Assembly (NCBI RefSeq): GCF_000377765.1
Contig: NZ_KB898666.1
Location: 248,001 to 312,000 of the forward strand
Reading direction: 5' to 3'
Origin: Gracilibacillus lacisalsi DSM 19029
GTDB taxonomy: Bacteria > Bacillota > Bacilli > Bacillales > Amphibacillaceae
Length of the DNA: 64,000 nt
How positions within the stretch are numbered: position 1 is the first letter of the stretch; each line of letters starts with the position of its first letter. The translations under genes were made by a program, and so were the position numbers. This document shows, piece by piece, positions 47,975 to 64,000 of the stretch. Under the pieces are notes generated by a model that worked only from the letters and a program-made list of their open reading frames with translations, was not told the DNA's origin and did no database searches.

Positions 47975-48130
47975 GTGGGTGACAACACATGTATTTTTAA
48001 AAGTAAGTTATGCGCTAAAACCTTCATCAAACCCTCATTTTCTCGATGGTAAAAATTCACATTTCAAAAGTAAGTTATGCGCTGAATTAGGCCACTTGCT
48101 CTAAAAAAATTTAAAAGTAAGTTGTGCGCT
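47975..48130 (+). repeat. Left end of Tn7-like transposon with three TnsB-type sites
   Basis: The terminus TGTGGGTGACAACA resembles the Tn7 end TGTGGGCGGACAA. Inside it, AAAGTAAGTTATGCGCT occurs at 48000-48016 and 48067-48083, and with one change (TTGTGCGCT) at 48114-48130, all in the same orientation. Three spaced same-direction sites of about 20 bp are the layout of Tn7-left. These are the presumed TnsB binding sites. Confidence 0.85.
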
Positions 48131-48173
48131 AAAGAGCAGCTTAATTTAATTTTATTATGAAATTTAAAATGTA

Positions 48174-48203
48174 AAAGGGCTTAGATTTTCTTCTAGGCCC
48201 TTT
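48174..48203 (-). terminator. Terminator after DUF4062 gene
   Basis: AAAGGGC and GCCCTTT pair around a loop just past the stop of the DUF4062 gene, separating it from the transposon end. Confidence 0.65.
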
Positions 48204-48215
48204 CTATTCTTCCCG

Positions 48216-49841
48216 CTATTTTAGAATAGGTGTCAATTTCCCTTCAATAATTTCGGGGTAATATTTAGAAGATATTTCATAACGTATTTCCTTAGGAACA
48301 CCTCTAAATATGACTATTGATGGAAAGTACACATTTGTTTTCTGTTTTATATATGATTGCTTGTAACAAATGACGTCATAACCTTCTTCTTGAAAAGAAT
48401 CATAACAAAATATATCATCAATCAAGTTCCAATAATCTTCCTTATCTGATTGTATCTTTTCTTCATATGATTGATTAAAATTGTATAAGGAAACGTCTGG
48501 TGGAGTAACATGTTCAGGTCCTGTTGACAAATCATCATATTCCTTTACAGCAAGAGACTTTTTGGGTTTGAAAAATATTTCTAATATTTGAGTTGCATGT
48601 TCTAGGATATTATCATCTGGTAATGGTACTTGTCTTCCTATACTTAAATACCCACCTTCTACAAACAACTTTATATCTACATCTTCATCATAACTATTTC
48701 CTGAATTGGTTAAACATAAATCTAGATAGTACAATGAATCGAGTTCAGAAAAATAATAATCCCATTGTCTATACTCTTTTATTTTAGAATATACTTCTTT
48801 TAGCAATGAAAATTTTTCTTTTTCATCATCAGACCCAATTAAATTATACGAAGGACCTGTACCAAATGGCAGACCACCAAGAAATGACTCTTGTTTTTTA
48901 AGTTCTCCTAAATCAAAAAACATTTCATCATTTATATGAATATTAAATTCTTCAGCATATGTATTTATTTCATTTACCAGTTCTTCTTGTAAAAAAACCT
49001 TTTTACTAGTAAATATTTCTGAACTATTTTTGAATTGATTTTGTAGATCTGATCGAATTGATTCTAGTTTGGCTCTCGATTCTGTGACCTCATCTGTTTT
49101 TTTATTTGATACAGGAAACTTTGACTTTATTTCAGTAAATTTCTGGTTATGAAGATCAATTTCATTTATTTGTTTAAATATCTGGTTAATATCCGTTTCT
49201 AGATTTACCATAAACTTTGAATGTATATAATCAGTTTTATAAAGTATTGGATTTTCAGAAATTTTCCCTTGCCTAACACCTTTAATGAAAAGTTCACTGT
49301 TGTTAGAAAAAGTTTTTCCGTTACTTTCAGTAAGTATGTTTACAAAATGTAGAGATAGATGATTAAGAAAGAACTTCTTGAATTCTGTCAAATCTGAATA
49401 TGTTGCATAAATACCTTTATCCTCGTATCGCTTTCTAAAATCCAGTATTTTATTATGTTGTTCTGGATCAAAATTGCTAGGGTTGATTTGGCGATCACTA
49501 AAATAAAGAAAAACTTGCTTACCACTGTTTATTAACTCTTCAATCTCTTCTTCAGTCCCAGACCCATAATTATCAGTAGGGGTTCCAAACCTAGTCCAAA
49601 ACACCGCAACTGCTGCATCACAATCTAGAACAAATTGTTTGTTCAATAAATTTTGCGGTTTTTCTCCAGATTGCGGATAGGAATCCTTCGACCAATGTTT
49701 TGAGACTATTGAAATATTATTAGCTGAACCATACATACGATTAAAATCATTAACTGTCTCTTTTATAATTTCTAGTTCCTCTATAACATCTGAAGGACAA
49801 GATATTAGAAGATCATACTGAGTTACATTACGAGGCATCAT
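48216..49841 (-). CDS. DUF4062-domain protein, transposon cargo, possible defence effector
   Basis: A 541-residue protein. Residues 8-165 form a DUF4062, TIR-like alpha/beta domain: YDLLISCPSDVIEELEIIKE, CDAAVAVFWTRFGTPTDNYG, SGTEEEIEELINSGKQVFLY. Residues 200-300 are coiled-coil-like. The C-terminal 240 residues are acidic and match no family I know. DUF4062 domains often sit at the N-terminus of NLR-like or other immunity proteins, so a phage-defence role is plausible but unproven. It is the gene next to the left end, 81 bp behind tniQ1, with GGGGGAAG before tandem ATG codons. Confidence 0.72.
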   Translation of the reverse strand: MMPRNVTQYDLLISCPSDVIEELEIIKETVNDFNRMYGSANNISIVSKHWSKDSYPQSGEKPQNLLNKQFVLDCDAAVAVFWTRFGTPTDNYGSGTEEEIEELINSGKQVFLYFSDRQINPSNFDPEQHNKILDFRKRYEDKGIYATYSDLTEFKKFFLNHLSLHFVNILTESNGKTFSNNSELFIKGVRQGKISENPILYKTDYIHSKFMVNLETDINQIFKQINEIDLHNQKFTEIKSKFPVSNKKTDEVTESRAKLESIRSDLQNQFKNSSEIFTSKKVFLQEELVNEINTYAEEFNIHINDEMFFDLGELKKQESFLGGLPFGTGPSYNLIGSDDEKEKFSLLKEVYSKIKEYRQWDYYFSELDSLYYLDLCLTNSGNSYDEDVDIKLFVEGGYLSIGRQVPLPDDNILEHATQILEIFFKPKKSLAVKEYDDLSTGPEHVTPPDVSLYNFNQSYEEKIQSDKEDYWNLIDDIFCYDSFQEEGYDVICYKQSYIKQKTNVYFPSIVIFRGVPKEIRYEISSKYYPEIIEGKLTPILK

Positions 49842-49922
49842 CTTCCCCCTAAACTTTAAATTTAAAATTTATAAATAATTTTATCACACTTTTAAATTTT
49901 CTACCGACTCTTAAACTATAAA

Positions 49923-51596
49923 TTACATATAAGGTATTTGTATTTCTTCTGAATGGTATTTCTTACGTATCTTCCGAAATTTACCTATATATTCTATTGT
50001 ACTTGAGTAATAACGAAGTTCAGATTTCATATAATCTAAATATGCAAACTGAGATTTCATTCTAAAAGATATCTCTTTCCCCTTATACTGGTTAATCAAT
50101 AGCCTCCAAAATTTTTTTCTCAAATATTCTTTAAACATGGCATCCCTTTTCCGAATAAACTTTATATCAAGTTTGTTATTTTCCAAATTTAAAATTGTAT
50201 TTTTAAGCCATTCAATATCATTTCTATAGAGCCATGTATATGTAGGTAATGCCGTATATTTTAACTCTAAATAATGTTTCTTAGGGTTATTATGGATCAA
50301 TTGAATCCACTTCTCCCTATAAAATTGATAATCCCTTTCGTTCGTTTTTTCAATAATACCATATACTTTTTGGTGGAGAGAAAATTCAACAGTAATAATT
50401 TCAATTTGTAGCTTTTGTGCTATTGATTTTATTGATATGTTATTTTGATATATATGTTTATATAAATACTGCAACAACTTGTCATTGTAATAACTATATT
50501 TTGATCCTTGCAACATCACATCATCATCCCCAAAAATTCCGTCAAACTGCAATCCACATTTACAATGATAAGAAATCGTACCAATATTCCTTCTTCTAAG
50601 TCCATACTCTGACAACATATAAAACTTTAACAGTGGTTTTTCCGAACAATAATGATTTTCACATGTAGATATATGTTTTAAACTATCTAATGGCATGTTC
50701 ACAAATTCCTTAATATTACCTACTAGAAAAATAATTAAGAGCAAGCGTTCCATATAATGCAAATAGTTTAGATGAACATTCTCATATAACTCGTTAGCAA
50801 ATTGGGTTGGATTAAAACCAATGACTTGTAAGAAGTTTAAACCGTAAAAACTGATAAACCGATCTACTAATTCCAGCTTTTTAATCGAACCATAACGATC
50901 TAATAGTCCCATGTCTTTTAATAAAATGATTATATTTAATCTACTTTTATGATATAAATCATAATTTTCATTTGATAATTTTTTACTTTCTTGCGCAAGT
51001 AATAACAAATAAAATAATGACTTCTTAGTTACTTTGTTATGTTGAGATGAAGATCGGATACAATTATATTCAGTTGCAACAATAAGGGCTTTCGTCGTTA
51101 ATAATACTGAACTCTCAGCTAGTAGGATTTTATGCTTCGGGCAGACGAAAACCGTAGGAATTTGAAATAGAGATCTCCAATAGGTCTCTCCATACATTTC
51201 ATAATCCTCTTCCATACACTCTGGACAGAATTTAAAATAATCTGTGCGATTTACTAAATCCATTCCTTTAGAAAATACTTTGTTATGTTTTTTTTCTCCG
51301 AACAATAATTTTGAATAAGTATTTTCTACTTCAAAACGAGGGTGAAAATTACTATAATAATAAAATAAAGTGTGTTTCTTAATTACCTCTGGCAATGATA
51401 AATAATAGAATATGTCCAGTTCGTTAAGTATCTTTTTTAAATTATAAGGAATGGATTTTCCAAGCGTACTCATTCTTGTATTAAATAAATCATACAAAAA
51501 ATTCATCTCATTAGTTTCTAATGATTGAGCAAAGTACCTAGAGAGAACACTGTAGAATAATTCCCCAGGATAGGGTTTAGGAAAATTACTAAGCAT
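49923..51596 (-). CDS. TniQ/TnsD-family target-site protein 1
   Basis: Chooses the insertion target for the Tn7-like transposase and recruits TnsC. The 557-residue protein opens FPKPYPGELFYSVLSRYFAQ, the TniQ hallmark. Zinc ligands Cys-124, Cys-127, Cys-152 and His-155 are in FCPEC and VCPKH. A second finger is visible near 315-350 (CENHYC, then CKCG). The C-terminal half holds TnsD-like winged helices with KHYLELKYTALPTYTWLYRN. It is the last gene of the tnsABC operon, 18 bp behind tnsC. Confidence 0.9.
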   Translation of the reverse strand: MLSNFPKPYPGELFYSVLSRYFAQSLETNEMNFLYDLFNTRMSTLGKSIPYNLKKILNELDIFYYLSLPEVIKKHTLFYYYSNFHPRFEVENTYSKLLFGEKKHNKVFSKGMDLVNRTDYFKFCPECMEEDYEMYGETYWRSLFQIPTVFVCPKHKILLAESSVLLTTKALIVATEYNCIRSSSQHNKVTKKSLFYLLLLAQESKKLSNENYDLYHKSRLNIIILLKDMGLLDRYGSIKKLELVDRFISFYGLNFLQVIGFNPTQFANELYENVHLNYLHYMERLLLIIFLVGNIKEFVNMPLDSLKHISTCENHYCSEKPLLKFYMLSEYGLRRRNIGTISYHCKCGLQFDGIFGDDDVMLQGSKYSYYNDKLLQYLYKHIYQNNISIKSIAQKLQIEIITVEFSLHQKVYGIIEKTNERDYQFYREKWIQLIHNNPKKHYLELKYTALPTYTWLYRNDIEWLKNTILNLENNKLDIKFIRKRDAMFKEYLRKKFWRLLINQYKGKEISFRMKSQFAYLDYMKSELRYYSSTIEYIGKFRKIRKKYHSEEIQIPYM

Positions 51597-51614
51597 TAAA
51601 TCATCCCCTAAATA

Positions 51615-53258
51615 TTATAAAATTAAATCATCTGTAACAGATTTTATAATTCCTGCTCCAATTAGCGAATCTCTAGCTGAAAGTTGTTTTTTTCTACCTT
51701 TTTCCACTATGTCATGTAATTTATTTGTCGACGCACTCTTATCTAATTTCATAACTTTCTTTTGTTTTTGTTCTTCCCATTCATCAATTTTTTTCATTGC
51801 TATGAAAACCGCATTCTTTGCATTAATATTAGAATTCTGTTGAATAACTACCTTTGCAGCTTTCTCGGCTAGTTCTTCTTCAATGTCTAAAGAGAGAAGC
51901 GTCATAATAACTTTTTCTAATATGGAGATTTCTTTTTTTGCTCTTTTTTTAGCTTGTATTTCTTTTTCCATTTGTATTTTTTCCCGCATATCTATCGCTG
52001 GCATTCTCGAAGACAAGAATTCTTCTAAATCTAATGGTGTTATGTCTTCATATTTTGCAATTTCCTCTTTTTTACCCGACTCCAGTGCTTTTAAAAACGG
52101 AATGATAAGTTTCAAATGTTCTTTTTTAACATAACGAATCACATCAAAAGTTAATTCCTCAATACCAGCTTCAATCGCATAAGATTGACCAAGGAAGTAT
52201 AACTTAACTGCAATATCTGTTATTCCCTGACTTTCCTTATATAAGAAATTCATCCATTCTTCATTTAATGTAGTGTTTTCTTTAGTCCATTGATAATCCC
52301 ACATAGCAGTCATAAGCACTTTCCAATTATCATCATTTTTCATTTGTTCCCATACCATATCTCCATGACCACTACTTCTACGAGCCTGTCGAAAATCTTT
52401 TTGTAAAATGGTTTTTGCTTTCATTGTCCCTATCAACATAATTGGAATTCCTATCTCGTTTATCATCGTTACAAAAAAATTCATTACTTCATCAGATTCA
52501 CTTTTTTTATGCACTAATAAATGTTGAATTTCATCTATAACTAAAGCACCTATACAATGTAACCTTGCAACTTGTCCCATCCTTACAACCATGGAACTAT
52601 TCGAATTTCTCTTATTTCCATACTTTTCAAAATAGTTAGTTCCGATTAATTGATCAATTTTCAAAAAGAAGTCCATGCATAATGTTTTTATTGATCCATC
52701 ATGTGGAGAGTTAAGTTTTAACCATGTGATCTGAAATAAACTTAATGGATATTTATGCACAACAACTTGTGGATACAAAGATAAGACTCTTTCTACTGCA
52801 GAAGTTTTCCCAATTCCAGAGAACCCCATTAGCGTAAAGCTCGATGAAGTAGTTCTAATATCTGGCGATAAACCCAGATCATATTTATTAATTAGTCTAT
52901 CTTTTAACTCATTCAATACAAGCGTATGCTGCTTATCATTTGGATTTCTATTAACATACCCATATCGTAAAAAACGAGAAAATTTAAGTTCTAATTCAAT
53001 TGTTTTGTTGGTGGGCTGATAAAATCGTGATAACCTTAATAATGCATGGTATCGATGATGGATCGATAAATTTCGTTCTTTTGAATTGTATTCAGGTAGA
53101 TAGCTTAACTGTTCATAGGATTCTTCGAATGATAAAATGGGGGGTAAAGCCTCAATTAATGGATTATTTTTAAAGTCCAGAATTTCTTGAGGCGTATAAA
53201 TGGCATAGGGTACTTGTTTACCGTTAGGAAGTTGAACTGAAGTTTCATCATTCTTCAT
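51615..53258 (-). CDS. tnsC: TnsC-like AAA+ ATPase of Tn7-like transposon
   Basis: ATP-dependent regulator that links the target selector to the transposase. It has 547 residues, near the 555 of Tn7 TnsC. Walker A GFSGIGKT is at 145-152, Walker B ALVIDE ends at residue 243, and sensor-like IPIMLIGTMKAK near 272-283. The N-terminus (YEQLSYLPEYNSKERNLSIH) is long, and the C-terminal 170 residues are helical, acidic and basic mixed, as in TnsC. It overlaps the end of tnsB by 11 bp, so the two are coupled. Confidence 0.92.
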   Translation of the reverse strand: MKNDETSVQLPNGKQVPYAIYTPQEILDFKNNPLIEALPPILSFEESYEQLSYLPEYNSKERNLSIHHRYHALLRLSRFYQPTNKTIELELKFSRFLRYGYVNRNPNDKQHTLVLNELKDRLINKYDLGLSPDIRTTSSSFTLMGFSGIGKTSAVERVLSLYPQVVVHKYPLSLFQITWLKLNSPHDGSIKTLCMDFFLKIDQLIGTNYFEKYGNKRNSNSSMVVRMGQVARLHCIGALVIDEIQHLLVHKKSESDEVMNFFVTMINEIGIPIMLIGTMKAKTILQKDFRQARRSSGHGDMVWEQMKNDDNWKVLMTAMWDYQWTKENTTLNEEWMNFLYKESQGITDIAVKLYFLGQSYAIEAGIEELTFDVIRYVKKEHLKLIIPFLKALESGKKEEIAKYEDITPLDLEEFLSSRMPAIDMREKIQMEKEIQAKKRAKKEISILEKVIMTLLSLDIEEELAEKAAKVVIQQNSNINAKNAVFIAMKKIDEWEEQKQKKVMKLDKSASTNKLHDIVEKGRKKQLSARDSLIGAGIIKSVTDDLIL

Positions 53259-55383
53259 TTTTCTTCATCCTTTGTTTAGAGAAAAGGTCCATTATTGAAT
53301 ATGATTGATTATGTATGCTGTTCTTATTAATTGGATCTAATTCATTTTTTGGGAATTCAACATGTTTACTGGTATTTTTCAATTCGATTTTTTCATCTAA
53401 ATACCTTTCATTCTGCTCTTTTGATCTTTTGGTTTTTAATTGAGAAATTTTATTACTTTTACTTATGTTCGAATCATGTTCTGCTTTCTTTCTAGTTTCG
53501 GCTTCCTTCACTATTTCCTCTACTTGTGTATAAAGATTCAGTTTGTTCGTTAATTTATTGTGTTTTAAGCTATCTTTTGTTTCCGCTTCGTGATCCATTA
53601 ATTGATCTATTTCATTAAGAGACTTATTTAGAAACTTTTCTTGGTGGGGTAGAAGGGTACACATTTTATATGGTGATTCAGTTCCTTTTACATGTAAATA
53701 AATGACATCCATATTCCTTGGATCATAGGAAAATTTCATTTTCCACTTCTTTTTTCTAGCCTTTACAAACCAATCTTCTTCAATAGCGATATCACATGAA
53801 TATAACATTATTTTATACCGAATCCCCTGAGCTGTTACAGTAGCCATATCCGTTGGTAGTAAATGAAAGTCCACTAAGTTTTTGTTTGCTTTCTGAAGCC
53901 CACCATTTATTTTTATACCCCAATTCCATAACTCTATTGGAATTGGTCGGACATTATCTTCAATCATATCAACATTCCTATTATAATCTGACATATAATG
54001 ATTGTGATTATAGTAAAGTATAAAATAAACAATCACTTTTACATAATCATCTAGTGTTAGCGTTGCTTTATGTCTAAAATCTATGGAACCCCTTTTACCT
54101 GAATCTTTATGTATATATCCTGGTAGTAGCGGTCGCAATAGGTCATGCGAAGAATGAAATAATTGTTCCACAATTCCTTTCCAATCAGGGCGATATGGGG
54201 GGTTATTATGAATTTCTATACCTAATCCTTCCACTAAAGAATCCGCAAATTTACTTTCTAATTCTCCTCTATCACCAATAATTGCATTAGGAAGCCCTAT
54301 TACTGGCCAATCACCTTCAGCAAAACTGATTCCAAGTCTATTACAATATTCTCCTTTATCACTAAATGCATTTTGTAAAGCCGTTGCCATGCTTATCCAT
54401 GAAGGATTATTTAAACTGATATAAAATCCTGTAATCATCCTACTAAAAACATCTATGACAAAATAAAGTGTTGGTTTTCCCACCATCCAGTTTGTATTAA
54501 ATCTGTTTAACAAGAAAATATCAGCAGGTGTTGCATCAATTTGATATAGTGAACCTGGACCGAGTGCGTCATGTTCTGTTGATCCTAATAATTTTCTATA
54601 GTTCCTTTCAAACGCGGTTTCTCCTTCACGCTTTTTTACCACTACATCTAATTGGTATAGCTTCTGAAACCAATAATAAAATTGATAATAACTTGGAATA
54701 TTTTCTTCATCTTGCAAAACTAATTTTCTCTTGTTTTCTGTATACACATATCCCTTCTTAAAATAATCTTTGATCATCATGTCATAAGCAAATTGCAAAG
54801 AAGGTTTTGTTCTAGACAAATAATATTTATTGATACATATTTTAAAGATTTCTTTCAACTCTTCTGAAACATTAATTCCCCCACCTTTTTTTCTAGGACG
54901 ACCAGCTTTACGTTTAAATTGATAATCACCATAATTTCCACAGTTTACATAGTCAGGCAAAAGACTATCAACTACCATTCCACGTTGCCAATATTTGCGT
55001 AAATACTTCATAATAGTATTGGCAGAAACATTCTTTTGAGCAACTACTTCTCGGATTAATTTTCCACGTCTTTGTCTAAGATAAATATCCGGTTCTTTAT
55101 GTACAATATCCTTAATTGATTCCCATGCTCTATTCCTAAATTGAACGTCCTGTTCTTTTATATCATACTTTACTAATCGATTAGACAAAAGGTTGTCTTC
55201 AATGTAGATAGAGTCCCCATTTGCTAAGTCATCTTCAACCTCATTTAGTTTAAGTTTGATAGGAAGAGCTTTCTCTACTTGAGTATCAATAATATAACCC
55301 AACTTCAATTGCCTATCCAACCATAAAATTCGGAAAGTCTCTTCAGTGTGAACGTTTTGAATTACATCATTTACTACTAGCAT
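53248..55383 (-). CDS. tnsB: TnsB-like DDE transposase of Tn7-like transposon
   Basis: Binds the end repeats and makes the 3' cuts and joins. From ATG 55383 (GAAGGGA ahead), 711 residues. Catalytic triad in the rve fold: Asp-283 (GSLYQIDATPADIF), Asp-371 (AIIGDRGELES), Glu-406 (GIVEQLFHSSHDLL). N-terminal helix-turn-helix region at about 85-150 (VVAQKNVSANTIMKYLRKYW). The C-terminal tail (about 620-711), rich in Lys, Glu and Asn, is where Tn7 TnsB contacts TnsC. The start overlaps tnsA by 17 bp. Confidence 0.94.
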   Translation of the reverse strand: MLVVNDVIQNVHTEETFRILWLDRQLKLGYIIDTQVEKALPIKLKLNEVEDDLANGDSIYIEDNLLSNRLVKYDIKEQDVQFRNRAWESIKDIVHKEPDIYLRQRRGKLIREVVAQKNVSANTIMKYLRKYWQRGMVVDSLLPDYVNCGNYGDYQFKRKAGRPRKKGGGINVSEELKEIFKICINKYYLSRTKPSLQFAYDMMIKDYFKKGYVYTENKRKLVLQDEENIPSYYQFYYWFQKLYQLDVVVKKREGETAFERNYRKLLGSTEHDALGPGSLYQIDATPADIFLLNRFNTNWMVGKPTLYFVIDVFSRMITGFYISLNNPSWISMATALQNAFSDKGEYCNRLGISFAEGDWPVIGLPNAIIGDRGELESKFADSLVEGLGIEIHNNPPYRPDWKGIVEQLFHSSHDLLRPLLPGYIHKDSGKRGSIDFRHKATLTLDDYVKVIVYFILYYNHNHYMSDYNRNVDMIEDNVRPIPIELWNWGIKINGGLQKANKNLVDFHLLPTDMATVTAQGIRYKIMLYSCDIAIEEDWFVKARKKKWKMKFSYDPRNMDVIYLHVKGTESPYKMCTLLPHQEKFLNKSLNEIDQLMDHEAETKDSLKHNKLTNKLNLYTQVEEIVKEAETRKKAEHDSNISKSNKISQLKTKRSKEQNERYLDEKIELKNTSKHVEFPKNELDPINKNSIHNQSYSIMDLFSKQRMKKNEE

Positions 55384-56212
55384 TGAAATAATCGATCCCT
55401 TCTTTTTGATGGTTAATAGAAAGATCATGTATTGTCCGTTTTCGCAAATCAAGCTTTTCATTCATATTTATTGAGACAACTTTATTTGCTAATAAGTATC
55501 TAAAATAATTCACGCCTGTTCCGGCATTGAGTATATAATCTTCCTCAAATGCTGTAATTAAATCAAAAATAGAAACAATTTGATTCTTATTATATGTATC
55601 GTTTAGATATTTTAAAAAGGTATTGGCTAGTTCTACTTGTTCTTTTTCTATAATACGAAATGGGTGTATCCATTGAATGTTCCTAGTCAAATTAGATGGT
55701 AGATCTCTCTCTGTTACTATCAACCAATTTATTTCTTGTTGCTTCCAATATTCACGCTCTATTTCCAACTTGTCTAATACATCATTATCTTCTAGATGTT
55801 CCGATGGTTTAATAGAAATTGCTTCCGATTGTACTTGATTGTTTCTTCTAATAGTAATAACAACATCTGTTGTCACTGGGATAAAAGTATTGTTCTTATT
55901 ATCCTTTATATGCTTTATTCCCTTATTTTCCGCGATCTCTAATGTTTTCGTCCTATTTAAAGGGAACTGTTCTCTTACATCTAAAACAGCCTCACTCCAC
56001 TCCAGTAAATAAAAATAATTTCTTTCAATATTCGAAAAGAAGTGGTGGTTTCTACCGGTTTTCCAACCTTTAATTCTACTGCTATTCCCACGGCTAGGCA
56101 CATCATGTATAGTTAACCATGGTTTATAACTGCCTAACTCTCCACTACCTCTGCCTTCTTTAATGTACTTAGCTATTTTATTTTCCGTCCAACCATATTT
56201 TCTTTTTCCCAT
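55367..56212 (-). CDS. tnsA: TnsA-like endonuclease of Tn7-like transposon
   Basis: Makes the 5' cuts at transposon ends, so the element moves by cut-and-paste. 281 residues from ATG 56212, which follows AAAAGGTG; a frame 11 codons longer has no such site. Restriction-enzyme-like core: LLEWSEAVLDVREQFPL (about 69-85), Asp-116 in TTDVVITI and Lys-135 in AISIKPSEHL, the expected E/D-x-K pattern. The C-terminal winged-helix part follows at about 165-280. It is the first gene of the transposition operon. Confidence 0.92.
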   Translation of the reverse strand: MGKRKYGWTENKIAKYIKEGRGSGELGSYKPWLTIHDVPSRGNSSRIKGWKTGRNHHFFSNIERNYFYLLEWSEAVLDVREQFPLNRTKTLEIAENKGIKHIKDNKNNTFIPVTTDVVITIRRNNQVQSEAISIKPSEHLEDNDVLDKLEIEREYWKQQEINWLIVTERDLPSNLTRNIQWIHPFRIIEKEQVELANTFLKYLNDTYNKNQIVSIFDLITAFEEDYILNAGTGVNYFRYLLANKVVSINMNEKLDLRKRTIHDLSINHQKEGIDYFNASSK

Positions 56213-56310
56213 ATTTTCACCTTTTAATATTATTTTGTGAAGCATTTTTACACTTGCTAATATAATGAAAATGGATAAAATATATCTTGGGCTTTTAACT
56301 TGCCATGATT

Positions 56311-56328
56311 ATATCGTTATACGGATAT
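56311..56328. promoter_or_regulatory. Imperfect palindrome between tnsA and xre, probable repressor operator
   Basis: ATATCGTTATACGGATAT matches its own reverse complement at 14 of 18 positions. It lies in the divergent promoter region of tnsA and the XRE gene, so it could let one repressor control both directions. Confidence 0.5.
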
Positions 56329-56374
56329 TAATTCAAGTTAGAGATTAACATTAAATACGAGAGGGAGAATACAC

Positions 56375-56572
56375 GTGACTATAGGAGCAAGATTTAAAGA
56401 ACTTCGGCTAAAAAATAATCTCAAACAAACAGATTTTTCACATATGATTGGTGTTTCACAAGGTACTTTAAGTGATATTGAAAAAGGAAGATCAAAACCA
56501 TCAATCGATACAGTAATTGCAGTAAGTAAACAATTCCGGATTAGTACGGATTGGCTATTAAAAGGTAAATAA
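56375..56572 (+). CDS. XRE-family small repressor of the transposon
   Basis: A 65-residue helix-turn-helix protein consisting only of the Cro/C1 domain (FKELRLKNNLKQTDFSHMIG, VSQGTLSDIEKGRSKPSIDT). GTG 56375 follows GAGAGGGAG by seven bases. It lies divergent from tnsA and upstream of the second TniQ gene. Its position suggests it holds down the tnsABC-tniQ1 operon and perhaps tniQ2, but the sequence does not prove this. Confidence 0.88.
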   Translation: MTIGARFKELRLKNNLKQTDFSHMIGVSQGTLSDIEKGRSKPSIDTVIAVSKQFRISTDWLLKGK

Positions 56573-56587
56573 ATTTCTATAGAAAGG

Positions 56588-56621
56588 ATTATCTCCAGCT
56601 TTTTATGGAGATAATTTTTTT
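56588..56621 (+). terminator. Terminator between xre and tniQ2
   Basis: ATTATCTCC and GGAGATAAT with a ten-base loop precede TTTTTTT. It would limit read-through from the repressor gene into tniQ2. Confidence 0.8.
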
Positions 56622-56647
56622 AGGGAAAAATAAAGAAGGTGGATAAA

Positions 56648-58501
56648 ATGATTACATACTTGCCTACATTGTATCCTGGTGAATTATTATATAGCTGGTT
56701 TGCGAGATACCACGTTCATTCAGGGAATCTCAGTTTTAAACAAACAACTTTTGACTTATTTGGATCTACCTCTCATATCTCGACTCCCGATTTACCTTGC
56801 AGGTTATTATACCTTTATGATCAATGTAGACATTTTTGTCCTTCACCACCACAAGAATGGGTTCTCAAACACACATTTTATAATTACTATACAACATTTT
56901 CCACTTCACAAATAAGAGAAAAGGTGATGAGATGTATGTTGGAAGGAACGAATCATGCTTTACATATGTTAACTGGCCATATGGCTAGTACAGTGAATGA
57001 TATAAAAAATTTTCGATATTGTCATGTCTGCAAGAATGAAGATATTTCTTCATACGGCGAACCATTTCTACATACAATTCATCAACTTCCTAGTTGTTTA
57101 GTATGCCCGCATCATGGTGAGATTTTACTCGAAACATCTATTCCTTTTAGAGGATTTAATAAACATGAATATAGACCCTTGTTGTGTACCGACTATAATA
57201 GTAGAAGAATTATTAGCAACATTAACCATGAAACATTTGAAATCTTATTTACGATGGCAAAGGAAAGTCAATTATTAATTGATGGGAATTTTCAATTTGA
57301 CCCAGAAGAAATTCAGAAGTATTATAAGGTTCTTTTAAATAGGCAAGGATTATTAAGTCCAAAAGGTAACGTAAGACAACAACTACTGTTTTCTAGATTT
57401 TCACACTTTTTCAACGAAGACACTTTAGAACTGTTGCAGTCTGCAATTCAGTTAGAAAGTGAATCAAATTGGTTGAAATCTATTACAAGAAAACATAGGA
57501 AGGTCTTCCATCCCACAAGACATCTACTTTTTATGAACTTTGTAGGGACATCTATAGAAAGCCTAACGACTACGAAGCCAATAGAGAATGCCTTTGGAGA
57601 AGGCCCCTTTCCATGCTTAAATATAGCAGCTAACCATTACAAAAAAGATATCATTAACAACGTAATTATCACGCATTGTTCAAAAACACAAAAACCTATC
57701 GGCACCTTCACTTGCCAATGTGGATTTATTTATACAAGAAGAGGGCCTGATCCAAATTCCGAAAACAGATATTGTATTAGTAGGATAAAACAATTTGGGG
57801 GAGTTTGGATGTCAAAGCTTGAAGTACTTGTAAGCAAAAAAGAGTATAGTTTAAGAAAAATAGCTCGACAATTAAATGTAGATACAAAAACTGTCATTAA
57901 ATATTCAAAAAAGAAAAGAAGTCATTCAATAAAATCTGAATCTGTTTCAGGTAACACTATCTCTATAATTAAGTACCGGAGAGAATGGCTCTTTCTTCAA
58001 CATAAAAACCCAACACTTAGCAAAACTAATCTCAGGAAATTAAATCCAAAATTATTTATGTGGTTATATAGAAATGACAAAGAATGGTTAAACAATCATT
58101 CTCCAAAATTGATAGAATTGAATCCTCCATCTAATAAAATCAACTGGTCACATAGAGATGAAGAAATTGCAAAAATCATCATCCCAAAAGTTATACAAAT
58201 ACTTAATCATTCTAAGCCTTTAAGGGTTACCAGGAACAAAATCGGAAAATTAATTAGAAAGCAAGCTTTGTTAGAACGACATTTAGAGAAATTACCTATT
58301 ACCAACTTCATCTTAGCTGAAGTAACGGAATCGGTAGAAGAATTCCAGATAAGAAGAGTAGTCTGGGCGTTTAATGAATTAAAAGATCAACAGGAAGTTA
58401 TTAAAATGTGGGAACTAAAAAGGTTTGCTGGACTCCCAAATAGAATCGATTTACATTCTAAACTACATGACACAATTGAAAGACTGAAAACATCCAACTA
58501 A
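56648..58501 (+). CDS. TniQ/TnsD-family target-site protein 2
   Basis: A second target selector, 617 residues. It opens LPTLYPGELLYSWFARYHVH (TniQ). Zinc ligands Cys-125, Cys-128, Cys-153 and His-156 are in YCHVC and VCPHH. A second finger lies near 355-375 (HCSKT, then FTCQCGF). C-terminal segments SKTNLRKLNPKLFMWLYRND and PNRIDLHSKLHDTIERL mark full-length TnsD-like proteins. ATG 56648 is preferred; the GTG nine bases earlier lies in the AGAAGGTGG ribosome site. It is divergent from tnsABC and only distantly similar to TniQ1, so each may serve a different target. Confidence 0.9.
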   Translation: MITYLPTLYPGELLYSWFARYHVHSGNLSFKQTTFDLFGSTSHISTPDLPCRLLYLYDQCRHFCPSPPQEWVLKHTFYNYYTTFSTSQIREKVMRCMLEGTNHALHMLTGHMASTVNDIKNFRYCHVCKNEDISSYGEPFLHTIHQLPSCLVCPHHGEILLETSIPFRGFNKHEYRPLLCTDYNSRRIISNINHETFEILFTMAKESQLLIDGNFQFDPEEIQKYYKVLLNRQGLLSPKGNVRQQLLFSRFSHFFNEDTLELLQSAIQLESESNWLKSITRKHRKVFHPTRHLLFMNFVGTSIESLTTTKPIENAFGEGPFPCLNIAANHYKKDIINNVIITHCSKTQKPIGTFTCQCGFIYTRRGPDPNSENRYCISRIKQFGGVWMSKLEVLVSKKEYSLRKIARQLNVDTKTVIKYSKKKRSHSIKSESVSGNTISIIKYRREWLFLQHKNPTLSKTNLRKLNPKLFMWLYRNDKEWLNNHSPKLIELNPPSNKINWSHRDEEIAKIIIPKVIQILNHSKPLRVTRNKIGKLIRKQALLERHLEKLPITNFILAEVTESVEEFQIRRVVWAFNELKDQQEVIKMWELKRFAGLPNRIDLHSKLHDTIERLKTSN

Positions 58502-58792: not shown

Positions 58793-60061
58793 ATGTTATA
58801 TAGATTAAAATTTTTTAATAATTTCTATTATGGTTGGTTAGTATTAATAATTGGTGGTTTAGGAGTTTTTTTCTCTGGTCCAGGACAAACATTTTCTAAT
58901 TCACAATTTATAGATGAGTATATAAACGATTTTGGATGGTCTAGATCCCTAGTTTCTGGAGTATATTCTGTTGCAACCTTGGTTGCAGGTTTATTAATGA
59001 TTTTAGTTGGACGATTTATCGATCGTTTTGGCCCTAGAGCTATGATGGTAATAGTTGGAACATTATTCTCATTTGCATGCTTTTATAACAGTTTTGTGTC
59101 TAGTATTTGGATGCTTGCATTAGGGTTTTTCTTGGTACGTTTACTAGGGCAAGGAAGCATGACTTTAATTCCAAATACCTTAGTAGCACAATGGTTTATT
59201 AAAAAGAGAGGAAGAGCCTTCAGTATAAAAGCCCTTTTTGGGTTTGCAGGCGCAATGTTATTTCCGATTATCAACACTTGGTTAATACAAACTTGGAACT
59301 GGCAAATTGCATGGCAATTTTGGGGATTCGTTCTATTATTTGTGTTTGTTCCAATTGCATTTTTTGGAGTGAAGAATCATCCAGAATCTATTGGTTTGCA
59401 ACCTGATGGGGAGAAAGAAGCGGAAGAAAATAAAAATGGAAGCAGACTAGTTACGCCGATTCGTGAAGCAGAAGAAGATTGGACATTGAAGGAAGCAATG
59501 AAAACTAGAGCTTTTTGGGCGATATTAATTTGTGTCGGTATTCCGGCTATGGTCAATACTGGCATTACTTTTCATATTACTTCCATTTTTAGAACGAATG
59601 GACTTTCTCTTGAAGTTGCAGCGTTAGTATTAAGTTTAATGGCACTTATAGGGATACCTATTTCGTTAATTTCAGGTGTAATATTGGATAAGGTAAAAAC
59701 AAATTTAGTACTACTTGTAGTCTTTATTATAGAATTCTTTGTCCTTTTATTGTTATTCATTACAGATACTTTCTTCTTGGCGATATTATTTGGTTTCTTA
59801 TGGGGGGTAGCAGGCGGCTTAGAACGTATCGCTATTGGAGTTATTTGGCCTAATTACTTTGGTAGAAAACATATCGGAAGTATTAATGGAGTCGGTGCAA
59901 CTATAGGGGTTATTGGTTCTTCATTAGGTCCATTACCATTTGGTATAGGATTTGATTTATTTGGGAGCTATAATTTAGTTATACTACTAACACTGATATT
60001 TCCGATGATAGGTATCATAAGTTCTCTTTTAGCGAAAAAACCGATTAAAACTAATGAATAA
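58793..60061 (+). CDS. MFS transporter, oxalate/formate antiporter-like (OFA) family
   Basis: A 422-residue, twelve-span membrane carrier. The opening FNNFYYGWLVLIIGGLGVFF and GPGQTFSNSQFIDEYINDFG is typical of OFA/monocarboxylate-type carriers. The loop GRFIDRFGPRAMM (about 73-85) is the MFS motif A. A long central loop (about 200-235) is charged. Substrate is probably a small organic anion, but cannot be set. It is transcribed alone, to the right of tniQ2, and may be transposon cargo. Confidence 0.88.
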   Translation: MLYRLKFFNNFYYGWLVLIIGGLGVFFSGPGQTFSNSQFIDEYINDFGWSRSLVSGVYSVATLVAGLLMILVGRFIDRFGPRAMMVIVGTLFSFACFYNSFVSSIWMLALGFFLVRLLGQGSMTLIPNTLVAQWFIKKRGRAFSIKALFGFAGAMLFPIINTWLIQTWNWQIAWQFWGFVLLFVFVPIAFFGVKNHPESIGLQPDGEKEAEENKNGSRLVTPIREAEEDWTLKEAMKTRAFWAILICVGIPAMVNTGITFHITSIFRTNGLSLEVAALVLSLMALIGIPISLISGVILDKVKTNLVLLVVFIIEFFVLLLLFITDTFFLAILFGFLWGVAGGLERIAIGVIWPNYFGRKHIGSINGVGATIGVIGSSLGPLPFGIGFDLFGSYNLVILLTLIFPMIGIISSLLAKKPIKTNE

Positions 60062-60103
60062 AGAAATGACTACATGCAATGGTATGCATGTAGTCATTTC
60101 TTT
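60060..60103 (+). terminator. Terminator after MFS gene
   Basis: AAAGAAATGACTACATGCA and TGCATGTAGTCATTTCTTT form a nineteen-base-pair stem with a six-base loop, starting at the stop codon. Confidence 0.85.
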
Positions 60104-60354
60104 AATATATCCACACCATATAATGGATAAAAAACTATTCTTTATGAAAATATTAAAAAATATTTTCAATTTAATAGTTTGTGATATTTTATAGTATTTT
60201 AAAGTATAATTGCGCAAATTAATGAAAACAATTATTGTTCGCGTTTCCATGGTATTTTGACGATTTTGTGAATTGTGATATAGTTCATGATGTTCACGGC
60301 GGAATTTTCTCTGAAACGCTCAGAGAAGCAAAAATAATATGAAAGAGGTGCTTC

Positions 60355-61818
60355 ATGAACATAGCAAAAAAAATTAAATATGAATGGTTTGGGAACGTAC
60401 GAGGTGACGTTTTAGCTGGAATTGTTGTAGCTTTAGCGTTAATTCCAGAAGCAATTGCGTTTTCCATTATTGCAGGTGTTGATCCAATGGTTGGACTCTA
60501 CGCTTCCTTTTGTATTGCCGTTGTTATCGCGTTTATTGGTGGGAGACCCGGGATGATTTCAGGTGCAACAGGGGCTATGGCATTATTGATGATCACATTA
60601 GTTGCAGATCATGGATTGGAATATTTATTGGCTGCCACTATTTTGACCGGTATCATACAAGTTCTTTTCGGGGTTTTTAAGTTAGCAAGTATTATAAAAT
60701 TTGTTCCTCGTTCAGTGATGGTTGGATTTGTTAACGCACTTGCTATTATGATTTTCACTTCACAACTTCAACATTTTGAAGGTGAAAGCTGGATCATGTA
60801 TAGTATGGTAGCTTTAACATTAGCGATTATTTATATTTTTCCACGAATCACAAAAGCAATTCCCTCCACATTAGTTGCTATTGTTGTCGTAACTGTAATA
60901 GCGGTATTTGCAGGGTTAGGCATTCGTACAGTAGGAGACTTAGGGAATATTTCTTCCCAATTACCTATCTTTATGATTCCTAATATACCACTATCTTTCG
61001 AAACATTAGCGATTATTTTCCCATACTCATTGGCATTAGCAATTGTTGGTTTGCTAGAATCATTGTTAACAGCAAATATTGTTGATGACATGACAGATAC
61101 AGAAAGTAATAAAAATAAAGAGAGTCGTGGACAAGGGATTGCTAATATCGTAACGGGTTTCTTTGGCGGGATGGCTGGTTGTGCAATGATAGGACAATCC
61201 GTAATCAATGTTAAATCAGGCGGGAATGGTAGATTGTCTTCATTAGTTGCAGGTGTTTTTCTCATGTTTTTAATTATTGCATTAGGAGGAATTGTTGTTC
61301 AAATTCCTATGGCAGCATTAGCCGGTGTAATGATTATGGTTGCCATTAGTACATTCGATTGGTCATCTTTACGAAACATTCATAAAATTCCTAGAACAGA
61401 TGCTATTGTAATGATAGCAACCGTAATTACCGTAGTAGTAACACATGACTTATCGAAAGGTGTCTTATTAGGTGTCTTACTAAGTGCTATTTTCTTTGCA
61501 GCAAAAATATCCAAAGTTAAAGTGACTCACATTTCATCTGTAGATAACAGTAAGAAAATTTATAAAGTGCATGGGCAAATTTTCTTCGCTTCAGTGAATG
61601 ATTTAGTTGAAAAATTTAACTTTAATGAACCTATCAAGCAAGTGGAAATTGATCTTACAAACGCTCACCTCTGGGATGACTCGGCAATTGGAGCATTAGA
61701 TAAAATAGAGATGAAATTTGAGCAAAATCATGTTAAGGTTAAATATATAGGATTGAACGCAGAAAGTAGATTACTAAAAAGAAAAATAGGTGGTCTATCT
61801 AAAGCGTCGGGTCATTAA
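60355..61818 (+). CDS. SulP-family anion transporter with STAS domain
   Basis: A 487-residue SLC26/SulP carrier. The membrane domain (1-390) shows [20 protein letters not shown] near 18-37, [12 protein letters not shown] and [13 protein letters not shown]. The STAS domain (about 395-475) has the [17 protein letters not shown] and [20 protein letters not shown] motifs. Bacillar SulP proteins of this length are proposed to carry sulfate or bicarbonate, often with sodium. AGAGGTG precedes the ATG. It is followed 21 bp later by a universal stress protein, a common and probably functional pairing. Confidence 0.92.
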
Positions 61819-61839
61819 TGGCAGAAGAGGTGAAGGGGC

Positions 61840-62256
61840 TTGTATAAAAAGATATTACTTGCAACAGATGGATCAGAACACTCGATTCGAGCAGCGTCTC
61901 ATGCAATAGAAATCGCTCAAGTTAAAAATGGATCGATAGATATTGTCTATGTAGTAGATGGAAATACGTCAAAGTCAGATGTACTTCATGGAATAGATAA
62001 ATATGAAGTAAAAAAAGAAAGAGAAGAAAAGTTTAAACCTATAAGAACGAAAATTAAGGAAGCAGGTATTTCGTGTGAAACTCATTTTCTACATGGTGAA
62101 CCCGGTCCTAGCATTGTTGAATTTGCTAATGACAATCAATATGACCTTGTGGTTGTAGGAAGTAGAGGATTAAACAAATTACAAACCATGATCCTAGGAA
62201 GTGTGAGTCACAAAATTCTCAAACGGGTAGAATGTCCGGTTTTGGTTGTCAAGTAA
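61840..62256 (+). CDS. UspA-family universal stress protein
   Basis: A 138-residue nucleotide-binding protein. It opens YKKILLATDGSEHSIRAASH. The ATP-binding signature GSRGLNKLQTMILGSVSHKI (G-2x-G-9x-G-S type) is at about 108-127, then CPVLVVK. The start is TTG 61840 after GAGGTGAAGGGG. It is co-transcribed with the SulP gene, whose activity it may modulate (inference). Confidence 0.92.
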   Translation: MYKKILLATDGSEHSIRAASHAIEIAQVKNGSIDIVYVVDGNTSKSDVLHGIDKYEVKKEREEKFKPIRTKIKEAGISCETHFLHGEPGPSIVEFANDNQYDLVVVGSRGLNKLQTMILGSVSHKILKRVECPVLVVK

Positions 62257-62259
62257 TTT

Positions 62260-62287
62260 AAAGCTAGCAGTCATGCTAGCTTTTTTT
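62260..62287. terminator. Terminator between uspA and helD (convergent)
   Basis: GCTAGCA and TGCTAGC, flanked by AAA and TTTTTTT, lie between the convergent UspA and helicase stops and probably serve the UspA message mainly. Confidence 0.8.
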
Positions 62288-64000
62288 ATTTGTCACTATA
62301 ATACTTTGGGTCAATCGCTTCTAACTGAAATGCAGAGATATCATTTCCAATTAAATATAGCTGATGCATTGCTCTAGTCATCGCAACATATAATAATTTT
62401 GATTCTAAATCATTATAATGATATTTACTCTCCATATTAACTAAGATAACCACATCAAATTCTAACCCTTTTGCTAACGATGCTGGAACAATGGTGATTT
62501 TTTCTTTGATCGCATCCGTCTCCGTTAATAGTTGTATAGATGAATCGGTCTTCTGTTTGAAAAACCGATATAGTTCTTCCGCTTCTTTGTCATTTTTAGT
62601 TATCATAGCAATCAACGAATGTGTTTCGTCTACCAATTGATTCACCAAATTTTCTAGTTTATTCAATAGTATTGATTTGGTTTTTTCGATGATTAGTGTT
62701 GGCTTTAATCCATGTCTTACAACAGGTTCAGCTAAAGGCAATTTGGCGGATTGATTTTTTAGAATTTCATTTGCAAGTTCCATAATTTCTATTGTCGTTC
62801 GATAACTTTTTTGTAAAGTGATATAATTCGATTTCGTTAATAAGTCACTTTGAATATCTTTCCAGTTATCAATACCACGATATTGATGAATACCTTGTGC
62901 TAAATCACCTAAAATGGTAAATAGTTTGGTCTGATTGGCAACACTTAATGCTCTGAATTGAAATAAACTATAATCTTGTGCTTCATCAATTACAATATAC
63001 TTCATTTTTAGCTCGTCCTTCACACCAAAAAGTTTCGCTTGGATAAACAGAATAGCAGCAAGATCTTCTATTTCAAATTCACCTTTATTTATTGTTAATT
63101 GTGATTGATTAAATAGTAAACTTATTTCTTCAGGATTTAATATTTCCTCTGCATATTTTTTTAGTAATTTTTCATTACATAGCAAATTTTTATAGTACTC
63201 AGTCGCATTCTTCTTAGGGAATTTATTCATATATTTATTGACATTACGTAAGGTTTCACTTTTTATTTCTTTTATTACTTTTTCTTTATTATTTAATAAT
63301 GCAACTGTCTTACTTCTTCTTTGTTCTCCGTCTTTATATTTAAATTGTATCTTTTCAAACTTTTCTTCGAATTTTTCCTCAATTTTACTGAGCAAATCGT
63401 CTTTTTTCTTCTTAAATTCTTTTTTTAGAAGTTGTGATATTTTTTCTTTTCTTTGATCGATTGTTAGATAACAGTAATCTTTTAGAAAAAGCTTTTGAAT
63501 TTTCTTATAAGAAAAAAATTTATATTTACTTATATATAAATCTTCTTTAGGCACATACTTTCGAATTATTTCTTTTAAGTAATTCTTGATTAATTTTTCA
63601 AATTCAACGGAACCTTTTATTTTTGAGATATTTTCTGTTTTTTCACGGTTTCGATCTTGGTTTTCTATCAGTTCTTTTAATTTATTGTTAGGGTTTATTA
63701 TTGGAATTTGTGTACCGATACATTCTTGAACATATTCTACAAATGTACTTTGCCTGATTTTATCTACACCTAATTCTGGTAATGATTGTGCGATGTAGTC
63801 GATAAACATTTTGTTCGGTGCTAGGATCATCACTTTATCAGGTGACATTTTATCTTGGTAATGATAAAGAAAATAGGAAAGCCTGTGTAAAGCAATCGTC
63901 GTCTTTCCACTTCCTGCAACCCCTTGTACGATCATTGGTTTTTGAAGATCTTGGCGAATTACACTATTTTGTTCTTCTTGTATAGTAGCTACAATATCAT
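62286..64000 (-). CDS. HelD-like superfamily 1 helicase (N-terminus beyond window)
   Basis: A UvrD-like ATPase; HelD releases stalled RNA polymerase from DNA. The visible 571 codons run from TIQEEQNSVIRQDLQKPMIV, without a start, to the stop. Walker A GVAGSGKTT lies soon after the open end. Walker B is MKYIVIDEAQDYSLFQ, with ILGDLAQGIHQYRGI (motif III), LQKSYRTTIEIMELA (motif IV), ASLAKGLEFDVVILV (motif V) and LYVAMTRAMHQLYLIG (motif VI). A long, Lys-rich coiled-coil-like arm lies between motifs I and II, as in HelD. It is convergent with the UspA gene. Confidence 0.9.
   Translation of the reverse strand, partial: DIVATIQEEQNSVIRQDLQKPMIVQGVAGSGKTTIALHRLSYFLYHYQDKMSPDKVMILAPNKMFIDYIAQSLPELGVDKIRQSTFVEYVQECIGTQIPIINPNNKLKELIENQDRNREKTENISKIKGSVEFEKLIKNYLKEIIRKYVPKEDLYISKYKFFSYKKIQKLFLKDYCYLTIDQRKEKISQLLKKEFKKKKDDLLSKIEEKFEEKFEKIQFKYKDGEQRRSKTVALLNNKEKVIKEIKSETLRNVNKYMNKFPKKNATEYYKNLLCNEKLLKKYAEEILNPEEISLLFNQSQLTINKGEFEIEDLAAILFIQAKLFGVKDELKMKYIVIDEAQDYSLFQFRALSVANQTKLFTILGDLAQGIHQYRGIDNWKDIQSDLLTKSNYITLQKSYRTTIEIMELANEILKNQSAKLPLAEPVVRHGLKPTLIIEKTKSILLNKLENLVNQLVDETHSLIAMITKNDKEAEELYRFFKQKTDSSIQLLTETDAIKEKITIVPASLAKGLEFDVVILVNMESKYHYNDLESKLLYVAMTRAMHQLYLIGNDISAFQLEAIDPKYYSDK

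What the first reader, a model, noticed from the sequence alone, without database searches (positions are those of the whole stretch)
47975..58501. Tn7-like transposon carrying two different full-length TniQ/TnsD selectors
The tnsA-B-C operon ends in one TniQ/TnsD (557 aa) while a second (617 aa) is encoded divergently under an XRE repressor. Both keep the CxxC...CxxH finger and a second finger, so both look functional. Other Tn7-like elements use paired selectors for two target modes (for example a fixed site and a plasmid- or RNA-guided mode). Here no tnsE, Cas gene or CRISPR array is visible, so the second mode would be new or the partner lies outside the window.
Basis: partly seen in the sequence, partly recalled or inferred. 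Interest (0 to 1): 0.9.

Follow-up and report, generated by a model that had tools for sequence, protein, structure and literature searches.

The report
glmS-homing Tn7-like transposon, two selectors
A Tn7-like jumping element parked beside the glmS gene carries, besides the protein expected to find that site, an old and much altered second copy that keeps the parts facing the transposition machinery but has changed the parts that read DNA, so it may send the element to a different place that is still unknown.

Summary
One Tn7-like element (window 47990 to about 70104, past the window edge, 22 kb) encloses both TniQ/TnsD genes and sits 21-29 bp behind glmS, the classic attTn7 site. TniQ2 (617 aa, behind an XRE gene, divergent) is an ordinary glmS-type TnsD. 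TniQ1 (557 aa, end of the tnsABC operon) is an old paralogue, 25% identical. I found the pair in six further elements, and all seven have TnsB-site-like repeats just behind glmS. The seven TniQ1s form one clade (99/96); recent duplication of the window pair is rejected (p-AU 0.0008). TniQ1 keeps the TnsC-facing N-terminus and zinc-finger cysteines, has lost most residues conserved in the DNA-reading parts of TnsDs, and is the least conserved tns protein in 21 of 21 pairs. No TnsE was found in the genome, and no Cas gene or CRISPR array in what was scanned of the element. Best reading: TnsD homes to glmS; TniQ1 serves a second target, possibly mobile DNA. That second role is inference: no copy outside glmS was found. 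Dual tniQ-tnsD loci are published (998 loci), so this is a new variant of a known kind, not a new kind.

The parts
47990..48133 (+). left (glmS-distal) transposon end with three TnsB-like sites TTTAAAAGTAAGTTRTGCGCTAAA
   Evidence: host flank up to about 47989 by comparison with the G094 glmS site
48216..49841 (-). cargo: DUF4062-like N-terminus, resembles candidate defence protein PDC-S60
   Evidence: 19.5 bits, below the cut-off of 24.7; 97.6 bits on residues 9-237
49923..51596 (-). TniQ1, second selector, last gene of the tnsABC operon
51615..53258 (-). tnsC
   Evidence: AAA_22, TniB
53248..55461 (-). tnsB
   Evidence: (PADLOC TnsB)
55367..56245 (-). tnsA
   Evidence: TnsA N and C domains
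56308..56336 (-). predicted tnsA promoter TTGAAT-17-TATAAT holding the palindrome TATCCGTATAACGATA (TATC-N8-GATA), candidate XRE operator
   Evidence: derived from the three XRE-bearing elements, so not independent of them
56375..56572 (+). small XRE regulator, first gene of the divergent XRE-tnsD unit
   Evidence: HTH_3
56648..58501 (+). TniQ2, glmS-type TnsD
58793..64000 (.). cargo (MFS, SulP-like, UspA-like, UvrD-like genes; first three named by eye from the translations), continuing past the window as a methyltransferase and a YobI/Tmn-like NTPase to the right end at about 70104, next to glmS at 70129-71931

Best explanation
This is a glmS-homing Tn7-like transposon with divided target selection. 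TniQ2 is its TnsD: it binds the 3' end of glmS, recruits TnsC and puts the element into attTn7, where it now sits. TniQ1 is a paralogue that split off once in the ancestor of this transposon lineage. It still docks on TnsC through its TniQ core, but its DNA-reading half has changed, so it directs the same TnsABC machinery to a second target that is not glmS, taking the place that TnsE or a CRISPR TniQ has in other two-pathway elements. In the divergent form (window, G355, Cytobacillus praedii) a small XRE protein made with TnsD probably represses the tnsABC-tniQ1 promoter through a palindrome overlapping it. Shown: one element, glmS site, both frames open, single old origin of TniQ1, co-inheritance with TnsBC, pattern of lost and kept residues, conserved palindrome. 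Inferred: docking, activity, a second target, repression.
For: Site: right-end repeats 21-29 bp from the glmS stop, the distal flank matched in 5 of 15 same-genus glmS loci. Six further dual elements; all six have 20-bp repeats starting about 30 bp behind the glmS stop (two copies only in G328), and L048 lies on the glmS contig (length 52370). TniQ2 matches Tn7 TnsD structure 8glu by profile with E 1.8e-103 and fold. TniQ1: seven rows one clade 99/96, TniQ1 plus partners 100/98, window pair as sister rows rejected p-AU 0.0008. TniQ1 shares on average 4.86 of 7 at 35 TnsD-conserved columns in residues 1-170, but 2.33 of 7 at 9 columns in 261-300 and 0.9 of 7 at 10 columns in 521-617. Lowest identity of five tns proteins in 21 of 21 element pairs. 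TniQ1 model resembles TnsD(1-318) 8glu (E 2.8e-9). In Tn7, TnsD residues 1-309 suffice for TnsC contact and loss of the last nine abolishes attTn7 binding (PMC2918618, passages).
Against: No insertion away from glmS was found for any dual element, so no second target is seen. No TniQ1 orthologue in plasmids, phages or three viral-contig scans. TniQ1 is rare: in 397 genomes only the four already known members. In the TnsB+C tree the seven duals are not one clade: G471, G048 and G139, with a single TniQ, fall among them, so losses or transfers are needed. Fast evolution also fits relaxed constraint. G324 TniQ1 is only 470 aa. The TniQ1 model is middling (pLDDT 79). The promoter scan did not list a tnsA promoter around the palindrome in C. 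praedii.
Confidence: 0.58

Rival explanations
1. TniQ1 is not a selector of its own but an accessory: it caps TnsC, works as a partner of TnsD at glmS, or dampens transposition by occupying TnsC without binding a target.
For: The TnsC-facing N-terminus is kept while DNA-reading columns are lost; 7 of 7 dual elements stay at glmS; TniQ1 is co-transcribed in order with tnsABC.
Against: It keeps 470-567 aa with finger cysteines and helical C-terminal domains, more than a docking core needs; single-TniQ relatives at glmS do without it.
Confidence: 0.22
2. TniQ1 directs insertion into a second fixed chromosomal site.
For: Its architecture is that of a TnsD with zinc fingers and C-terminal helices.
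Against: No dual element was found at another chromosomal site (7 of 7 at glmS), and a conserved site would be expected to hold the DNA-reading half more constant than seen.
Confidence: 0.1
3. TniQ1 is decaying or neutral baggage.
For: Fastest-changing tns protein in 21 of 21 pairs; absent from three single-TniQ relatives in the same TnsBC clade.
Against: Open frames in seven elements at 21-43% identity with the CCCH and three further Cys columns invariant; the branching order of the five core members matches TnsB+C.
Confidence: 0.06
4. TniQ1 works with a CRISPR-Cas or other partner supplied in trans.
For: Published for short TniQs (PMC10293859, section 15, as a proposal).
Against: TniQ1 is long and keeps TnsD-like domains; no shared neighbour gene in five elements compared. 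Host Cas genes were not searched.
Confidence: 0.04

Closest known systems
Tn7 (TnsABC+D / TnsABC+E)
   Same: TnsABC core, TnsD-type selector, glmS attachment site, repeated TnsB-type sites at both ends, two-selector plan.
   Different: No TnsE in the genome; second selector is a TnsD paralogue; TnsD lies in a separate divergent unit with an XRE gene; cargo lies between the glmS-side end and tnsA.
Dual tniQ-tnsD Tn7-like loci (Faure et al. 2023, PMC10293859)
   Same: Two TniQ-family genes with one TnsABC; in-situ duplication and neofunctionalisation proposed there.
   Different: There one of the two is usually much smaller; here both exceed 550 aa, and the glmS role is assigned to one of them.
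Type I-B1 CAST (Tn7743/AvCAST)
   Same: glmS-type TnsD plus a second TniQ derived from a TnsD (PMC11406308, passages).
   Different: No Cas genes or array found; TniQ1 is full-length rather than a truncated TnsD.
Xre-regulated type I-F3 CASTs (RtaC/RtbC)
   Same: A small Xre protein beside the selector genes (PMC11406308, passages).
   Different: Protein-guided, no guide RNA; regulation here is only predicted.

Membership tests
Tn7-like transposon | tnsA, tnsB, tnsC and a tniQ/tnsD gene | tested here: met
Tn7-like transposon | repeated TnsB-type sites at both ends in inverted orientation | tested here: met
Tn7-like transposon | 5-bp target duplication | tested here: inconclusive
   ACACA possible; (TG)n run at the glmS junction
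glmS (attTn7) homing element | insertion just behind glmS, gene intact | tested here: met
TnsD (TniQ2) | TniQ core plus full TnsD domain, kin of Tn7 TnsD | tested here: met
TnsD (TniQ1) | full TnsD domain with the C-terminal part needed for attTn7 binding in Tn7 | tested here: not met
   partial Pfam match; C-terminal conserved columns mostly lost. Still TniQ-family.
CRISPR-associated transposon | Cas genes and array in the element | tested here: not met
   small ORFs and the MFS, SulP and UspA genes not scanned
TnsE pathway | TnsE gene | tested here: not met
   PF18623 0 in the genome, found in R721 control
dual tniQ-tnsD locus | two TniQ/TnsD genes with one tnsC | tested here: met
two-pathway transposon | second selector sends insertions to another target | not testable with these tools
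   needs a transposition assay

The most novel reading that the evidence does not exclude
TniQ1 is a protein-only replacement for TnsE: a TnsD paralogue that sends a TnsE-less glmS transposon into mobile or replicating DNA such as plasmids, while an XRE switch keeps homing and spreading apart. This would answer how such elements move between cells.
Probability: 0.28. Interest if true: 0.78.

Novelty: new variant of a known kind. Interest (0 to 1): 0.5.

Why it matters
glmS elements without TnsE have a known site to live in but no known way to spread. A TnsD paralogue that has kept machinery contact and changed its DNA-reading half, in seven related elements, gives a concrete gene to test for that. 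Papers seen do not assign a second target to such non-CRISPR pairs (searches; open-licence PMC papers only). If TniQ1 has its own target, it would also be a natural example of retargeting a TnsD.

Tried and rejected
Rejected: recent duplication of the two selectors; left end at 47975; one element inside another (the end-type sites with up to 3 mismatches lie only at the two ends on C5 within the region; other genome matches at 3 mismatches are no more than the reversed-pattern control, 11 against 9).

Led nowhere: finding TniQ1's target. Plasmids: 168 records match TniQ1, all under 60% identity, the best at 27-29% and apparently TnsDs. Phages: no match. Viral contigs: none; three loci at 29-33% over the first 164-201 residues, not examined. 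A shared partner gene beside TniQ1: none among five elements, G355's contig ends there and L048 is followed by a second tns operon. A clamp-binding-like motif: none shared. A strict regular expression for the basic TnsD helix motif matched only 50 of 98 rows and missed many glmS TnsDs, so I used alignment columns instead; the 53 comparison rows there are all rows from loci I had marked as glmS-linked, including a few second TniQs not shown to bind glmS. Rfam: one match far below its gathering score.

Choices that bear on counts: the careful tree used 33 of 98 rows, chosen by me; the partner TnsDs are one clade there with only 72/77, against 97 SH-aLRT in the quick 98-row tree. The seven dual elements came from several searches and are not a random sample; in the TnsB collection 3 of 80 loci had two long TniQs (L047, L048, L115).

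Full report
WHAT IS THERE. The window holds a tnsABC operon on the minus strand ending in TniQ1 (49923-51596), and a divergent unit of a 65-residue XRE protein (56375-56572) and TniQ2 (56648-58501). A search of the whole genome with Pfam TniQ found four genes: these two and two shorter ones on another contig. Three sites of the form TTTAAAAGTAAGTTRTGCGCTAAA lie at 47996-48133, and inverted relatives lie at G000:C5 318057-318095, that is at about window position 70057-70095, with further copies every 21 bp. The right-end copies abut glmS: its stop codon is 21-29 bp from the possible tips. The distal flank of the element matches DNA behind glmS in 5 of 15 same-genus loci, and in G094 the shared sequence includes TTGTGGGTGACAA, so the left tip is about 47990. 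The element is therefore about 22 kb, in attTn7, and encloses both selectors.

WHICH SELECTOR DOES WHAT. TniQ2 covers the whole Pfam TnsD model (355.7 bits) and its family profile matches Tn7 TnsD of solved structures with E 1.8e-103. In the 98-row tree it lies in a clade of nine TnsDs (97). It is the natural glmS selector. TniQ1 is 25% identical to it and matches TnsD partially (75.9 bits).

THE PAIR ELSEWHERE. G355 and Cytobacillus praedii (L048) have the same divergent arrangement with XRE; Neobacillus notoginsengisoli (L047), G054, G328 and G324 have tnsABC-TnsD-TniQ1 in a row. glmS is on the same contig upstream in each (for L048 the contig length of 52370 agrees), and arrays of 20-21-bp repeats start about 30 bp behind its stop in all six (only two copies in G328). 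With the window that is seven of seven at glmS. In G355 the far end is not seen, as the contig stops 966 bp after TniQ1. Matches and one search list stops in G355; by coordinates they fall at or outside the ends of the open frames in L143.

HISTORY. In the careful 33-row tree the seven TniQ1s are one clade (99/96), TniQ1s plus partner TnsDs are one clade (100/98), and the partner TnsDs alone have 72/77. Holding the window pair together costs 326 log units (p-AU 0.0008). So one old duplication in this lineage is the simplest account. TnsB+C of the five core members branch in the same order as TniQ1, but the seven duals are not one TnsB+C clade: three single-TniQ elements (G471, G048, G139) lie among them. 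No TniQ1 remnant was found in G048 or G139; matches there were to the TnsD. Long branches, especially G328 and G324, make the deep placement less sure.

WHAT TniQ1 KEPT AND LOST. CCCH cysteines and histidine and three further cysteines are invariant in seven of seven. At 35 columns conserved in at least 80% of 53 glmS-linked rows, residues 1-170, TniQ1s share on average 4.86 of 7; at 9 columns in 261-300, 2.33; at 10 columns in 521-617, 0.9; W275, present in all 53, is in none. Part of this may be general divergence. TniQ1 is the least conserved of five tns proteins in 21 of 21 element pairs. AlphaFold gave pLDDT 90.9 for TniQ2 and 79.1 for TniQ1; both resemble Tn7 TnsD(1-318) (TM by target 0.87 and 0.76 with 8glu). 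In Tn7 the N-terminal 309 residues of TnsD carry TnsC contact, and removing the last nine residues abolishes DNA binding (PMC2918618, passages). By analogy TniQ1 should meet TnsC and should not read glmS as TnsD does. That is inference.

REGULATION. The 129 bp between tnsA and XRE hold the palindrome TATCCGTATAACGATA; G355 and L048 have TATC-N8-GATA at the same place, followed by TAAT. The pattern made from these three matches no other of the 197 loci then held except copies of the same three sites. A TTGAAT-17-TATAAT promoter reading towards tnsA spans it in the window and G355; in L048 the scan did not list one. An XRE repressor acting on tnsABC-tniQ1 is likely but untested.

WHAT WAS NOT FOUND. 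TnsE: none in the genome, with R721 as positive control. Cas proteins: none among the proteins scanned. CRISPR array: none among the repeats listed. A copy away from glmS: none. In 397 genomes of the order, only the four known TniQ1s scored above 500 bits (they are in the profile), and the next match was 332 bits, a TnsD-length frame.

LITERATURE. Faure et al. 2023 (PMC10293859; outline, passages, sections 8, 11, 15) count 2,905 single, 998 dual and 50 larger tniQ-tnsD loci, and propose duplication and neofunctionalisation. The review PMC11406308 (passages) describes two-pathway elements, and Xre regulators in I-F3 CASTs. PMC2359905 (passages) notes glmS Tn7-like elements in Bacillus cereus that appear to spread without TnsE. 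So the plan is known; the assignment here and the XRE-split form are what is added.

VERDICT. Real, intact, old and conserved; one selector explained, the other a good candidate for an unknown second pathway.

Noticed in passing
L062, L068, L082, L084, L091, L116, L118, L124 (just upstream of tnsA): Eight Paenibacillus/Cohnella Tn7-like loci carry an XRE gene and a free-standing 119-130 aa ORF that matches only positions 516-616 of the TnsB profile (its C-terminal part), ahead of tnsA: perhaps a regulator made from a piece of the transposase.
   Followed up: partly
L017 9636-16142 (G000:C2): A second island in the same genome: tniQ-like (431 aa), tnsB-like (905 aa), tnsC-like (383 aa), tniQ (384 aa), without a tnsA seen; also two TniQ genes.
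   Followed up: no
L016 1990-5727 (window about 65989-69726): Cargo: 1245-aa YobI-like NTPase, also matching the defence model Tmn.
   Followed up: no
L048 15844-22112: A second tnsABC-tniQ operon of another type follows directly on the dual element in Cytobacillus praedii.
   Followed up: no
G059:C19 204865-206658: A same-genus genome has another Tn7-like element near glmS whose TniQ match holds one stop codon.
   Followed up: no
L163 (CP031730.1, 285699-305487): A record named Stenotrophomonas rhizophila plasmid holds glmS and a TnsC 60% identical to the window's; possibly misassigned DNA.
   Followed up: no
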